48,669 bases of DNA from Desulfurellaceae bacterium (lineage in GTDB: Bacteria; Desulfobacterota; Binatia; Bin18), in assembly GCA_021296095.1 (NCBI GenBank), contig JAGWBB010000018.1, forward strand, positions 1-48,669. Direction: 5' to 3'. Position numbers and translations under genes: made by a program. Shown here piece after piece: positions 18,244 to 23,582 of this stretch. Position 1 is the stretch's first letter; each line of letters starts with the position of its first letter. The notes beneath the pieces are model-generated. The model did no database searches and was not told where the DNA came from. It saw nothing but the letters and a program-made list of their open reading frames with translations.

Positions 18244-18564
18244 TCAGTCCCCACCATCCAGAATCCGAGCGATATCTCGTCCACCGTACAGGACACGCTC
18301 GATGAAAACGGTCTGCTCTGTGACACGGTAAAAAATAAGATGTCTGGTAAACCCTCGAATGCGCCAGATGCGGAGTCCCTGTAACCGTGGATGGGAAGTC
18401 TGGTACTGTCTGCCCATTTCCGGTTGTTGCGCTAACTGTTCAAACGTCCTGCGTGCGGCTGTAACAAATCGCCTGGCAGCAGACGGACTATCTTGCAGAA
18501 TATCCGTGGTCGTTGCAACGAGGTCTTCTTCCACCGCTCGCTCAACAACAAGCTGCCGTTTCAC
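18244..18564 (-). CDS. parE: ParE/RelE-superfamily toxin
   Basis: 106 residues, full length for the ParE/RelE fold. It begins with a strand and helix (QLVVERAVEEDLVATTTDIL), then SAARRFVTAARRTFEQLAQQPEMG, and ends with the beta-sheet RIWRIRGFTRHLIFYRVTEQ and VLYGGRDIARIL, the classic ParE ending. The ParE branch poisons DNA gyrase whereas RelE cuts mRNA; the pattern FxxFxxxLxxxPxxG and the ParD-like partner favour ParE. It overlaps the antitoxin gene by 4 bases (ATGA). Unlike the other toxin loci here, both partners look intact. Confidence 0.88.
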   Translation of the reverse strand: MKRQLVVERAVEEDLVATTTDILQDSPSAARRFVTAARRTFEQLAQQPEMGRQYQTSHPRLQGLRIWRIRGFTRHLIFYRVTEQTVFIERVLYGGRDIARILDGGD

Positions 18565-18851
18565 GACTTTCCAGGCTGATTTTTTCGTGCCGTCGGCTCT
18601 CGGACGATCCCTTCAAGGCGATCCCAAAACTCTGGGGTCAACTCGCGGTAGTCGCCCCGTTCCACCGCTTCCAGCAACTTCGCTTCCAGCTGCTGCCGGG
18701 TTGCTTGGTCCTGGTCGGCACGAATGAGGGAGCGGACATACTCGCTCACCGTATGAAAGCCCTGACTGGCGATACGCTCCTTAATGAACATTTCCATCGT
18801 CGCTGGAACAGGGACGCTCAAGATTTTCTTTGCATGGATTTCGGCGCTCAT
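18561..18851 (-). CDS. parD: ParD-like antitoxin
   Basis: 96 residues. The N-terminal ribbon-helix-helix reads LSVPVPATMEMFIKERI followed by GFHTVSEYVRSLIRADQD, the ParD DNA-binding dimer; a disordered, charged C-terminal tail would wrap ParE. It would neutralise ParE and repress its own promoter. No Shine-Dalgarno sequence precedes the ATG (AGACTGCGCTT), and a promoter-like TTGTGA-N17-TAGACT lies so close upstream that the transcript may be leaderless. The start is divergent from the restriction-modification gene, 118 bases away. Confidence 0.85.
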   Translation of the reverse strand: MSAEIHAKKILSVPVPATMEMFIKERIASQGFHTVSEYVRSLIRADQDQATRQQLEAKLLEAVERGDYRELTPEFWDRLEGIVREPTARKNQPGKS

Positions 18852-18857
18852 AAGCGC

Positions 18858-18886
18858 AGTCTATCAGTCGTCTGATTTATTCACAA
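18858..18886 (-). promoter_or_regulatory. Putative leaderless promoter of parDE
   Basis: On the minus strand, TTGTGA (18886-18881) and TAGACT (18863-18858) are separated by 17 bases. A start about 7 bases past the -10 would fall on the parD ATG. The same arrangement, TTGTGA-N17-TACGCT, occurs in the second copy of the direct repeat, upstream of the gene ending at 22492. The hexamers match sigma-70 consensus only moderately. Confidence 0.4.
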
Positions 18887-18893
18887 GAAATCA
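18862..18893. repeat. Direct repeat copy 1 flanking the RM block
   Basis: 32 bases matching 22864-22895 at 26 positions, in the same orientation: TATCAGT, ten variable bases, then the identical 15-base core ATTCACAAGAAATCA. The two copies lie 4.0 kb apart and enclose the restriction-modification gene and the small gene after it. Each copy also lies directly before a minus-strand gene, so a shared promoter or operator is an alternative explanation. Confidence 0.65.
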
Positions 18894-18901
18894 TATCCTG
18901 A

Positions 18902-18969: not shown

Positions 18970-21900
18970 ATGCCGATTGCCGCGGCTGCCAAACCAAAAG
19001 ACATCAAGGACTACTACGCGGCTCTGGACGCCTACGCTGAGCAGGGCGTGACGCATGAAGGGGCGGTGCGTTCGGCCTTTCAAAATCTGCTGGTCGAGAC
19101 CGGTCGGCGGGCCGGCTGGACGCTCATCCCGGAGTTGCCGCTGGGGTCCATCCGGCCTGACGGGACGTTTCGGGATGAGTATTTCCTCAACCGCGGCTAC
19201 TGGGAAGCCAAGGACACGAAAGATCGGCTTGAAGCCGAAATCGAGAAGAAAAGAGCCAAAGGCTATCCGCTGACAAACACGATTTTTGAAGACACCCGAC
19301 ACGCCTACCTGTACCAGAACGGTCAGGTCGCCATGCAGGTTGACCTGACCGAGCGGGAACAGCTCAGCAACCTGCTCATCACCTTTTTCTCGTACACGGA
19401 ACCCGCCCATGAGGACTTCGGCACGGCGGTGGGCGATTTCAAGCAGCGCGTGCCGGACCTGGCCCGCGGCCTTGTCCAGATCATCCAGGCTGCCCACACC
19501 ACCAACGCCAGATTCAAGCGGGCGGTTGCCAGTTTCTTTGAGCTGTGCCAGGACTCGCTGAATCCCAACATCAGTGAAGCGGCGGTTGACGAGATGCTGG
19601 TGCAGCATCTTTTGACCGAGCGGCTCATTCGGACGATTTTTGACAGTCAGGATTTTACCCGCCGGAACGTGATTGCGGCCGAGGTGGAAAAAGTCATCGA
19701 CGCCTTGGTCAGCAGGGCGTTCAACCGGCATGAATTTCTGAAACGGCTCGACCCGTTCTATCTGGCTATCGAGTCCGCCGCCCGAACGATTACGGATTTC
19801 AGCGAGAAGCAGCACTTCCTGAACGCCGTCTACGAGCGCTTCTTTCAGGGCTACTCAATCAAGGCAGCCGATACCCTTGGCATCGTCTACACGCCCCAGG
19901 AAATTGTCGATTTCATGTGTTCAAGCGTCGAGCAGGTGCTCAAGGAAGAGTTTGGCAAGCAGCTCAGCGACCCGGGCGTGAACATTCTCGACCCCTGCAC
20001 GGGAACCGGGAATTTCGTGGTGAACCTCCTGCGCCGCATTCCCAGGCGCGACCTGCGGCGCGTGTACACCGAGCAGCTGTTTGCCAACGAGGTCATGCTG
20101 CTGCCGTACTACATCGCCGCGCTCAACATCGAACATGCCTACTACGAACGCACCGGCGAGTATGAGCCGTTCGACGGCCTGTGCTTTGTTGACACGCTCG
20201 AACTGGCAGAGGGCAGCGAGCAACAATTTGCCTTTATGACCGAGGAGAACACCGCACGGGTAGAACGCCAGAAGACCGCCCCTATTACCGTTATTATCGG
20301 CAACCCGCCCTACAACGTCGGACAGATTAACGAAAACGACAACAACAAAAACCGGAAGTACAAAGTCATCGATGAGCGTATCAGAGTCACGTATGCCAAG
20401 GATTCCAGGGCGAGCAATGTCAACAAGCTCTCTGACGCCTACGTGAAGTTCTTTCGCTGGGCTGTAGAGCGGCTGGAAGAGCGGGACGGGATTGTATGCT
20501 TTGTGACCAATAACAGCTTCGTGGATCAAACCACTTTCGATGGCGTAAGGAAAAACCTGTTGCAAGATTTCACGAGTATTTACCACGTCGATCTGCACGG
20601 CAACGTCCGGGAGAATCCCAAGCTCAGCGGGACAACTCACAACGTATTCGGTATCCAGGTTGGCGTCGGCATTACGGTTGCTGTTCGTAAGGGGCAGCAC
20701 GTGGACCGTACCTTGCTGTATCATCGCGTTCCCGAAGGCTGGCGTAAGGAAGAGAAGCTGTCTTGGCTGACAAAGAAGCAGAACGTTGCAGGGGTAGAAT
20801 GGCGGACCCTGCAACCGGACGAGAGACACACCTGGATTCTTCCTCCACACGCTGATGAGTTCAGGGCACTACTCCCCATCGGGAGTCGAGAAACGAAAGC
20901 GAATAAGCAAAGAGACGAAGAGGCACTTTTCAAAACGTTCTCCATTGGCGTCAATACCAACCGGGATGCGTGGGTCTATTGCTTTGATAAAAATCAACTG
21001 GCCGATCAAGTCCAAAGGAGCATCGAAACATATAACAGCGAGATTGACCGTTGGAAGCGAGCAAAGATGCCGAAGGACATCGATAATTTCGTTGTCAATG
21101 ATGAATCAAAGCTCAAGTGGAGCAGCAGGCTTAAGGAGACATTTGCGCGTGGCCTCTATACGGATTTTGAAGAAGGAAAAATGAGGAACGCCCTCTATCG
21201 CCCTTTCACGAAACGCTTCTTATTCTTTGATTCCATCATGAATCATCGCCAAGGCATCTCGCCCTACATCTTTCCGACAACGGATGCCGAGAAGGAAAAT
21301 CTTCTTATTTGCGTTCCAAGCGTAGGAAATCGTAAAGATTTTGGTTGCATGGTCACCAATCTGATTCCTCCTTTAGACCTAGCCTTTGAGAAAGCCCAAT
21401 GCTTTCCCTTCTACGTCTACAACGAAGACGGCACGAACCGGCGTGAGAACATTACCGACTGGGGGCTTCAGCAGTTCCGCGACCATTACAACGACAATAC
21501 CATAACCAAATGGGACGTTTTCTATTACGTCTATGGCCTGCTGCACCATTCCGGCTATCGGGAGAAGTTCGCCGATAACCTGAAACGTGAGCTGCCGCGC
21601 ATTCCGTTTGCCCCAGACTTTCAGGCCTTCGCTTCTGCCGGTAAACAGCTTGCCCGGCTGCATCTCGAATACGAAGACCTTGAGCCGTATGATTTGCAAT
21701 GGATCGAATCGGACGAGGTGCCGCTCTCGTACCGCGTAGAGCGCCTAAAGCTCAGCAAGGACAAAACCGCCCTGATAGTCAACGATTCGCTCACCCTGGC
21801 CGGGATTCCCCCGGATGTGTTCGCCTATCGCCTCGGCAACCGCAGCGCCCTGGAGTGGGTCATCGACCAGTACCGTGTCAAGACGGACAAACGCAGTGGC

Positions 21901-22026
21901 ATCCGCTCCGACCCCAACCGTCTCGACGACGAAGAATACATCGTCCGCCTCGTCGGCCAAGTCGTCCGCGTCAGCCTGGAAACGGTAAGCATCGTCCGCG
22001 GTCTACCGGAAGATAGTGGATCATAA
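18970..22026 (+). CDS. Single-chain restriction-modification protein (N6-adenine MTase, type ISP/IIG-like)
   Basis: 1018 residues. At the N terminus, D64 (IRPDGTF) and E79-A-K81 (GYWEAKD) form a PD-(D/E)xK-like nuclease signature. Motif I of an N6-adenine methyltransferase is DPCTGTGNF at 341, and motif IV NPPY is at 445-448 (IIGNPPYNVGQ). The C-terminal third (about residues 630-1018) should be the target-recognition domain. The domain order and C-terminal half resemble type ISP enzymes (LlaBIII group), but no helicase motifs (GxGKT, DExx) are seen, so translocation is unlikely and a type IIG-like cut-and-methylate enzyme is inferred. The ATG has GAGGGA upstream. Bases 20850-21420 are visibly AT-richer than the flanks (24 G+C in the 60 bases from 21301), suggesting a transferred recognition domain. 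Confidence 0.85.
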   Translation: MPIAAAAKPKDIKDYYAALDAYAEQGVTHEGAVRSAFQNLLVETGRRAGWTLIPELPLGSIRPDGTFRDEYFLNRGYWEAKDTKDRLEAEIEKKRAKGYPLTNTIFEDTRHAYLYQNGQVAMQVDLTEREQLSNLLITFFSYTEPAHEDFGTAVGDFKQRVPDLARGLVQIIQAAHTTNARFKRAVASFFELCQDSLNPNISEAAVDEMLVQHLLTERLIRTIFDSQDFTRRNVIAAEVEKVIDALVSRAFNRHEFLKRLDPFYLAIESAARTITDFSEKQHFLNAVYERFFQGYSIKAADTLGIVYTPQEIVDFMCSSVEQVLKEEFGKQLSDPGVNILDPCTGTGNFVVNLLRRIPRRDLRRVYTEQLFANEVMLLPYYIAALNIEHAYYERTGEYEPFDGLCFVDTLELAEGSEQQFAFMTEENTARVERQKTAPITVIIGNPPYNVGQINENDNNKNRKYKVIDERIRVTYAKDSRASNVNKLSDAYVKFFRWAVERLEERDGIVCFVTNNSFVDQTTFDGVRKNLLQDFTSIYHVDLHGNVRENPKLSGTTHNVFGIQVGVGITVAVRKGQHVDRTLLYHRVPEGWRKEEKLSWLTKKQNVAGVEWRTLQPDERHTWILPPHADEFRALLPIGSRETKANKQRDEEALFKTFSIGVNTNRDAWVYCFDKNQLADQVQRSIETYNSEIDRWKRAKMPKDIDNFVVNDESKLKWSSRLKETFARGLYTDFEEGKMRNALYRPFTKRFLFFDSIMNHRQGISPYIFPTTDAEKENLLICVPSVGNRKDFGCMVTNLIPPLDLAFEKAQCFPFYVYNEDGTNRRENITDWGLQQFRDHYNDNTITKWDVFYYVYGLLHHSGYREKFADNLKRELPRIPFAPDFQAFASAGKQLARLHLEYEDLEPYDLQWIESDEVPLSYRVERLKLSKDKTALIVNDSLTLAGIPPDVFAYRLGNRSALEWVIDQYRVKTDKRSGIRSDPNRLDDEEYIVRLVGQVVRVSLETVSIVRGLPEDSGS

Positions 22027-22066
22027 GGACTCAGAGGTCATGTTCATTGTGCTTGAAGGAAAGCCT

Positions 22067-22453
22067 ATGCCGGAGCATTCTATAACGCTCACACTCCCTG
22101 ATGCGCTCTACCGACAAGCCCAGCAGGTCGCAAAAACAACCCAACAGGCAATCGAAGAGGTTGTCTTGGCATGGATACATCCTGCTCCAGAAGAGGGCCT
22201 GATGGGACTTGATGGGTTATCGAACGATGAGTTGCTCGCCGTCGCCCGAACGACCGTTCCCCCGGTTCACACCCGCCGGCTGCAAGACTTGCTCACTGCC
22301 CAGCGCCAGCGGAACCTCACCGAGAGCGAGCAACAGGAAGCGACAAAGCTTGTTGAACAAGAAGATCTGCTGACTCTTCGCAAATCGAAGGCTTTGTTAC
22401 TCCTCAAGCGGCGAGGCGCTCTCACTGGGAACCTCTCCGCCTTCGGTGTGTGA
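22067..22453 (+). CDS. Unrecognised small protein downstream of the RM gene
   Basis: 128 residues from ATG 22067, chosen because GAAGGAAA lies 6 bases before it; an upstream frame overlapping the RM stop by 11 bases could give 145. The N terminus SITLTLPDALYRQAQQVAKT looks like a ribbon-helix-helix or antitoxin-type start. The middle has SNDELLAVARTTVPP, and the C-terminal half is helical and leucine-rich (LTESEQQEATKLVEQEDLL, then LLLLKRR). Similar small proteins occur in cyanobacteria and other phyla, often beside toxin or defence genes; this is from memory and unnamed. It may be co-transcribed with the RM gene and regulate or modulate it. Confidence 0.65.
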   Translation: MPEHSITLTLPDALYRQAQQVAKTTQQAIEEVVLAWIHPAPEEGLMGLDGLSNDELLAVARTTVPPVHTRRLQDLLTAQRQRNLTESEQQEATKLVEQEDLLTLRKSKALLLLKRRGALTGNLSAFGV

Positions 22454-22491
22454 TGGCGTCGCTGGCCGATTGGCTTCGGTTGGGAAACGTT

Positions 22492-22848
22492 CTAAGACTG
22501 GTCAGATTGCGGTCGGGCGTCGGCTGTCCATTCTTCTTCGCTAAAGAAAACCAAGGAACAGAACTGTTCCGAATCTTCCTTCTCTTCTCGTGCAAGGACT
22601 CTGAGGGATGCAGCGCTACATTGAGCAACAGCGTCTTGCCAGTGCGCTGCTTGCAGAAAAGGCGACCAGTCCGCCGAATTGATCGGGACGTGAGGCTGAA
22701 CCTTGCCCTCTCGGATGTGCACAAAATCGATGCCAATGACCGCAATCCTCTTTTGTGAACATTCCTCCGCAAGCCGTGTGGCCTCTCGCAGCGGAAGGTA
22801 TTGCTCGTTCCCTCTGTCCATCGAACCTTTCTTCTCTTGGGTCTCCAT
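22492..22848 (-). CDS. Unrecognised acidic small protein, immunity-like
   Basis: 118 residues from ATG 22848; the frame is open to ATGs at 22875 and 22878, but those lie inside the direct repeat. A helix (YLPLREATRLAEECSQKRI) leads to a strand AVIGIDFVHI, then VPINSADWSPFL and a C-terminal helix and strand ending CSLVFFSEEEW. The composition is acidic with several Trp residues, as in many immunity proteins, but I recognise no family. No ribosome-binding site is seen. A promoter-like element identical in layout to that of parD lies immediately upstream. It is convergent with the small gene after the RM enzyme. Confidence 0.55.
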   Translation of the reverse strand: METQEKKGSMDRGNEQYLPLREATRLAEECSQKRIAVIGIDFVHIREGKVQPHVPINSADWSPFLQAAHWQDAVAQCSAASLRVLAREEKEDSEQFCSLVFFSEEEWTADARPQSDQS

Positions 22849-22863
22849 GCTCGTGAGATAGCG

Positions 22864-22895
22864 TATCAGTGACATCATTGATTCACAAGAAATCA
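22864..22895. repeat. Direct repeat copy 2 flanking the RM block
   Basis: Second copy of the 32-base repeat at 18862, with the same 15-base core ATTCACAAGAAATCA (22881-22895) and TATCAGT (22864-22870). On the minus strand it reads as TTGTGA-N17-TACGCT, with the -10 hexamer 11 bases before ATG 22848. The region right of it, to about 23030, has no clear coding potential and may be decayed. Confidence 0.65.
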
Positions 22896-23033
22896 GATGA
22901 GGAGGGAAGTGCTCGGGCAGGGGTAGGAGACCTCTCTCACAGCTCTTGTCAACAGGAATCCTCCTTAGTACGCTTCGCCAAGTGGCACGAACTCCCCGGC
23001 TGATTTTGGCCCCTCGTTCCTTAGCTCAGTCAC

Positions 23034-23221
23034 GGGTTATTGCGAAGGGGAATCGCATCCGGGATGTTCAACGATTGGTGGAGACATGTGGCGGCAGGAG
23101 ATCAAAGCGGGTCAAAAAAAGCAGCCTGCCCTTCGACACGGAGAGGAACCGCTACGAGTACCATTGGTATGAACATCCGGGTATTGGGCGCGTCGAGGTC
23201 AGACGTAAAAAGGTTGGCTGA
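23034..23221 (+). pseudogene. Toxin-C-terminal-like module without N-terminal start
   Basis: From about 23034 the frame reads VIAKGNRIRDVQRLVETCGG, then RRSKRVKKSSLPFDTERNRY and EYHWYEHPGIGRVEVRRKK, ending at TGA 23221. I recall closely similar segments at the C-terminal tips of polymorphic (RHS/CDI-type) toxins: K-GxxIRDVxRLVxxYGG followed by a basic stretch and HWYExxGIGR. No convincing start codon or ribosome-binding site exists: the frame is open back to TTG 22946, but that upstream part is not family-like. This is therefore best read as a displaced toxin tip rather than a working gene. Family assignment is tentative. Confidence 0.45.
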
Positions 23222-23224
23222 AAG

Positions 23225-23548
23225 ATGATCGTCAAGCTCCGTAGGCGAAACGCTCGCTATCCCGACCTCTCTTCGCACCAGCAGTATATGGTGATCGGGG
23301 TTGAGGCCGATGCGTTTCGTATCCTCAACGATGAAGGGCGTCCGTATCTGTATCCGGCTCGGCTCTTTGAGGTCCTTGATCCACGCGAGCCGGCGGATTG
23401 GGCCACCGAATTTGGTGAAGACGGCGAACGCTACGCTTATCCCCCCCCACTGAATAGCAACGGCTTTTTCGAGGACTTCTTTGAGTCCGACAAGGAAGCG
23501 GTAGCGACCTTCTGGCGCGTAGTGAACCAACGCCTTGCTGCGGCGTGA
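23225..23548 (+). CDS. Immunity-like small protein
   Basis: 107 residues, starting 3 bases after the toxin-like module. Pattern: YPDLSSHQQYMVIGVEADAF, RILNDEGRPYLYPARLFEV, then WATEFGEDGERYAYPPPL and a C-terminal GFFEDFFESDKEAVATFWR. I recall this SH3-like beta-barrel plus acidic tail (YPxL...YxVIGIEAD...ILxDEGxPxLYPxxLFEV) as a widespread family found beside polymorphic-toxin tips. Toxin-then-immunity order with near-zero spacing is the hallmark arrangement. It is intact whereas the toxin tip has lost its carrier, which fits an orphan immunity gene kept for protection against neighbours. Confidence 0.6.
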   Translation: MIVKLRRRNARYPDLSSHQQYMVIGVEADAFRILNDEGRPYLYPARLFEVLDPREPADWATEFGEDGERYAYPPPLNSNGFFEDFFESDKEAVATFWRVVNQRLAAA

Positions 23549-23582
23549 TTAACCAGCTTCTTCAAAACCGTGGTGGCCTTCC

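What the first reader, a model, noticed from the sequence alone, without database searches (positions are those of the whole stretch)
18970..22453. Compact all-in-one RM protein without helicase, followed by an unknown small gene
The 1018-residue protein has an N-terminal D64...E79xK81 nuclease-like signature, adenine-MTase motifs (DPCTGTG, NPPY) and a long target-recognition end, resembling type ISP enzymes but missing helicase motifs. The AT-rich recognition domain suggests separate transfer. The following 128-residue gene is tightly placed and may be a controller or modulator of this unusual single-chain system.
Basis: partly seen in the sequence, partly recalled or inferred. Interest (0 to 1): 0.6.

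Follow-up and report, generated by a model that had tools for sequence, protein, structure and literature searches.

The report
Ordinary one-protein restriction-modification enzyme (DrdV-like)
The long gene encodes a single protein that both cuts foreign DNA and marks the cell's own DNA, a well-known kind of bacterial defence enzyme with a solved close relative (DrdV), and the small gene after it is an unrelated leftover of another gene pair, so the locus is ordinary.

Summary
Window 18970-22026 (+) encodes a 1018-aa protein with an N-terminal D64...E79xK81 nuclease, an N6-adenine methyltransferase and a C-terminal recognition domain, and no helicase. It is not an unusual system. It is a full-length relative of DrdV (PDB 7lo5), a Type IIG/IIL enzyme: phmmer E 2.6e-224, 43% identity over the 861 aligned positions shown, and the same fold from end to end. 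A PADLOC Type IIG model is covered at full length. At least 561 relatives turned up in the genome collection.

The 128-aa gene is not a controller. Its homologues are almost always (16 of 18 places) the first gene of a separate pair with an HNH endonuclease, and the window's copy has lost its HNH partner. None of the 79 loci of other relatives carries it.

The AT-rich recognition domain is real, but all orthologues examined share it. It is the fastest-changing part (37-62% identity against 69-88% elsewhere), which fits change of specificity. Several Candidatus Binatia relatives have the same flanking genes, and five have decayed copies, so the locus was not recently imported as a unit.

Verdict: a new member of a known kind, low interest.

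The parts
18970..22026 (+). Type IIG/IIL (DrdV-like) restriction-modification enzyme, 1018 aa
18970..19359 (+). N-terminal PD-(D/E)xK endonuclease domain (about aa 1-130; E30, D64, E79, K81 invariant)
   Evidence: isolated DrdV nuclease chain 7lvv_C matches with TM 0.89 by target length, rmsd 1.4
19435..19797 (+). Coupler domain (Pfam ISP_coupler, aa 156-276)
19810..20769 (+). Gamma-class N6-adenine methyltransferase domain (about aa 281-600), motif I DPCTGTG and motif IV NPPY
20827..21399 (+). AT-rich, fast-diverging part of the target-recognition domain (aa 620-810)
   Evidence: Pfam Type_ISP_C aa 653-993
21400..22023 (+). Conserved C-terminal 'guide' part of the recognition domain (aa 811-1018)
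   Evidence: name of subdomain from PMC4872093
22067..22453 (+). Orphan first gene (128 aa) of a two-gene cassette whose HNH endonuclease partner is missing here; not part of the restriction system

Best explanation
The gene encodes a stand-alone Type IIG (IIL) restriction-modification enzyme of the DrdV kind. The C-terminal domain reads a short asymmetric sequence. The methyltransferase domain methylates one adenine in it to protect host DNA. On unmethylated DNA the N-terminal nuclease, probably after several site-bound copies assemble, cuts a fixed short distance from the site without ATP or translocation. Domain make-up, catalytic residues and (predicted) fold are shown here. The cutting mode, one-strand protection and multi-copy assembly are inferred from DrdV. 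The 128-aa downstream gene is an unrelated orphan from an HNH-endonuclease gene pair.
For: Full-length match to DrdV, E 2.6e-224, query 20-1015 to chain 15-1027; 43% identity over 861 aligned positions shown, with all catalytic residues shared. AlphaFold model (mean pLDDT 83.6) matches DrdV over 979 residues, Z 45.8 (rmsd 10.2, taken as different domain orientation), and the isolated DrdV nuclease domain at rmsd 1.4, TM 0.89. PADLOC REase_MTase_IIG model covered 6-1010 of 1024, E 3.7e-203. 561 confirmed relatives. Low dN/dS against two orthologues (0.12/0.98 and 0.16/1.04), so the gene has been kept under selection. 7LO5 is DrdV and is called Type IIL in PMC11842806; its mode of action is described in PMC10201449.
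Against: No activity or methylation data exist for this organism. Decayed copies in five relatives (G001, G002, G006, G013, G015) show that the locus is dispensable, so activity here cannot be taken for granted.
Confidence: 0.95

Rival explanations
1. A Type ISP enzyme that has lost its helicase and is now only a methyltransferase or a defective nuclease.
For: aa 184-1014 align to LlaGI and LlaBIII, and RefSeq labels such proteins 'type ISP restriction/modification enzyme'.
Against: The N-terminal 130 aa align to the DrdV nuclease, which works without a helicase, with all catalytic residues invariant in 43 relatives. Relatives of the same length occur in many phyla, so this is a stable architecture and not a recent deletion.
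Confidence: 0.04
2. An unusual single-chain system with a dedicated small controller or modulator protein (the 128-aa gene).
For: The small gene follows on the same strand after 40 nt, and a homologue also follows the broken copy in G015.
Against: The gene is absent next to the four intact family orthologues examined and from all 79 loci of other relatives. 16 of 18 homologues elsewhere are directly followed by an HNH endonuclease. No controller-type DNA-binding family is found.
Confidence: 0.03

Closest known systems
DrdV (Type IIG/IIL, Deinococcus wulumuqiensis, CATGNAC, PDB 7lo5/7lvv)
   Same: Length (1029 aa), domain order nuclease-coupler-methyltransferase-recognition, catalytic residues, fold over the whole chain
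   Different: 43% identity overall; recognition core only 34% identical, so a different target sequence is expected
LlaGI and LlaBIII (Type ISP)
   Same: Coupler, methyltransferase and recognition domains (aa 184-1014 align)
   Different: Type ISP carries an additional SF2 helicase-like ATPase between nuclease and coupler; absent here
MmeI and BpuSI (other Type IIL/IIG)
   Same: Same general layout and mode of action
   Different: Only 11-13% identity in structure alignments; a more distant branch

Membership tests
Type IIG/IIL (DrdV-like) | Nuclease, methyltransferase and recognition domains in one chain | tested here: met
Type IIG/IIL (DrdV-like) | PD-(D/E)xK catalytic residues in the N-terminal domain | tested here: met
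   D64, E79, K81 invariant and shared with DrdV; nuclease fold
Type IIG/IIL (DrdV-like) | Gamma-class N6-adenine methyltransferase motifs I and IV | tested here: met
   DPCTGTG and NPPY
Type IIG/IIL (DrdV-like) | Cleavage at a fixed distance without ATP; protection by methylation of one strand | not testable with these tools
   needs biochemistry or native methylation calls
Type ISP | SF2 helicase-like ATPase between nuclease and coupler | tested here: not met
   No helicase family in Pfam or NCBIfam; the nuclease domain ends near aa 130-145 and the coupler match starts at aa 156, so there is no room for one
Restriction controller protein (C protein) for the 128-aa gene | Conserved linkage with the enzyme | tested here: not met
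   Absent beside intact orthologues and from 79 relatives' loci
Restriction controller protein (C protein) for the 128-aa gene | Helix-turn-helix (Xre-type) domain | tested here: not met
   No match above cut-off in Pfam, NCBIfam or PADLOC
Two-gene HNH cassette (unnamed) for the 128-aa gene | Homologue of the small gene directly followed by an HNH endonuclease | tested here: inconclusive
   True of 16 of 18 homologues, but the HNH gene is missing in the window

The most novel reading that the evidence does not exclude
The orphan 128-aa protein, cut off from its HNH partner, has been taken over as a regulator of the DrdV-like enzyme in this lineage.
Probability: 0.03. Interest if true: 0.35.

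Novelty: new member of a known kind. Interest (0 to 1): 0.1.

Why it matters
It adds one more DrdV-type enzyme, probably with its own target sequence, in the little-studied Candidatus Binatia. The family comparison shows the methyltransferase part kept at 83-93% identity among the closer orthologues while the recognition core falls to 38-62%, the usual sign of specificity change. Nothing about the system itself is new.

Tried and rejected
Controller gene: rejected. Recent import of the whole locus: rejected, because the flanks 22526-22814 and 22969-23557 are conserved near the enzyme or its remnants in several relatives. A recurring partner gene next to the enzyme in other phyla: none; the commonest neighbour family is in 5 of 78 loci. 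Single-sequence folding of the N-terminal 150 aa gave a poor model (pLDDT 61) and was not used.

Predicting the target with the published Type ISP code (PMC4872093), mapped by hand from the alignments, gave conflicting hints. In that paper's numbering: no reading at -1 (V and N at 1118 and 1131); an Asp at the +3 residue as in DrdV; Asn at 1228 suggesting A:T at +4, but Asn at 1056 and 1058 suggesting a GC or CG step at +4/+5; Arg at 1327 suggesting C:G at +6. This is too weak to state a motif.

A paper search for the HNH pair found nothing.

Full report
Observation. The frame from ATG 18970 to the stop at 22026 is intact and gives 1018 residues. A plausible ribosome-binding site (GAGGGA) lies just before the ATG. 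Pfam finds N6_Mtase, Eco57I, ISP_coupler (aa 156-276) and Type_ISP_C (aa 653-993) and no helicase. The nuclease signature is real: E30, D64, E79 and K81 are invariant in 43 relatives and align with E25, D64, E79 and K81 of DrdV.

What it is. phmmer against the PDB gives DrdV (7lo5) at E 2.6e-224 over almost the whole protein. LlaGI and LlaBIII follow, but only from aa 184 onward. The entry 7LO5 is DrdV, named Type IIL in PMC11842806. PADLOC's REase_MTase_IIG model PDLC03621 is covered from end to end (6-1010 of 1024, E 3.7e-203). The AlphaFold model (pLDDT 83.6) matches DrdV over 979 residues with Z 45.8. PMC4872093 states that Type ISP enzymes resemble Type IIL enzymes apart from an inserted helicase-like ATPase. 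A single chain without a helicase is therefore the normal Type IIL layout and not a gap.

How it works. By analogy with DrdV (PMC10201449), the recognition domain binds an asymmetric site, the methyltransferase slowly methylates one adenine, and rapid cleavage follows only when several site-bound copies assemble and supply nuclease domains in trans, a short fixed distance downstream. Only the domain make-up, catalytic residues and predicted fold were shown here; the rest is inference.

How common. The best 79 lie in Planctomycetota, Poribacteria, Chloroflexota, Cyanobacteria, Acidobacteriota and others. On plasmids, proteins of the same length are already annotated as 'type ISP restriction/modification enzyme'.

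The recognition domain. In four intact orthologues the window protein is 69-82% identical in aa 1-130, 79-88% in aa 131-580 and 73-88% in aa 811-1018, but only 37-62% in aa 620-810. Between G010 and G012 the methyltransferase part is 93% identical and the recognition core 46%. G+C in aa 620-810 is 44-50% in all five proteins. So the AT-richness belongs to the domain and is no mark of a recent import into this genome. The fast divergence does fit exchange or rapid change of specificity.

The locus through time. Downstream flanks 22526-22814 and/or 22969-23557 lie near the enzyme or its remnants in G001, G002, G010, G012, G013 and G015. The gene is cut down to N-terminal pieces in G001, G002 and G013, broken in G015 and internally deleted in G006. 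In the window it is intact, with dN/dS far below 1 against G010 and G012. Titles of the nearest loci name Candidatus Binatia.

The small gene. The 128-aa protein has no family match above cut-off. Apart from a short remnant in G001, its relatives in the same family of genomes were fetched from 18 other places; in 16 of these the next gene on the same strand is an HNH endonuclease. In G015 the 80%-identical homologue is followed by such an HNH gene. In the window the HNH gene is missing: about 71 bases separate the homologous blocks ending at 22455 and starting at 22526, against about 650 in G015. Intact enzyme copies in G003, G007, G010 and G012 have no small gene beside them, and none of the 79 loci of other relatives has one (some of these contigs have short flanks). 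It is an orphan of another cassette that happens to sit here.

Verdict. The description is accurate, the system is a known kind, and interest is low.

Noticed in passing
22067-22453; L003, L100-L117: A family of two-gene cassettes (about 128-aa protein with a ribbon-helix-helix-looking start, then a 140-aa HNH endonuclease with weak similarity to PtuB) is present in many copies in some Candidatus Binatia (8 matches each in G008 and G011). Function unknown; toxin-antitoxin-like by layout.
   Followed up: partly
18244-18851 (-): A ParD/ParE-type toxin-antitoxin pair lies directly upstream of the enzyme gene. It is absent in the sister species G001, which carries unrelated DNA at that place.
   Followed up: partly
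18862-18896 and 22864-22898: A 35-nt direct repeat (80% identical) flanks the enzyme and small gene. Its 15-nt core occurs only at these two places in the whole genome, even allowing one mismatch, and was not found in relatives' loci. Each copy lies just upstream of a minus-strand gene. Unexplained.
   Followed up: partly
22492-22878 (-): A second, unrelated 128-aa frame on the minus strand is conserved (62-77% identity) at the same locus in several relatives; no family match above cut-off.
   Followed up: no
L123 (G006:C12): The G006 copy of the enzyme has an internal deletion joining about aa 1-362 to aa 872-1013 in one open frame of 532 aa, so it lacks the NPPY motif and the recognition core.
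   Followed up: no
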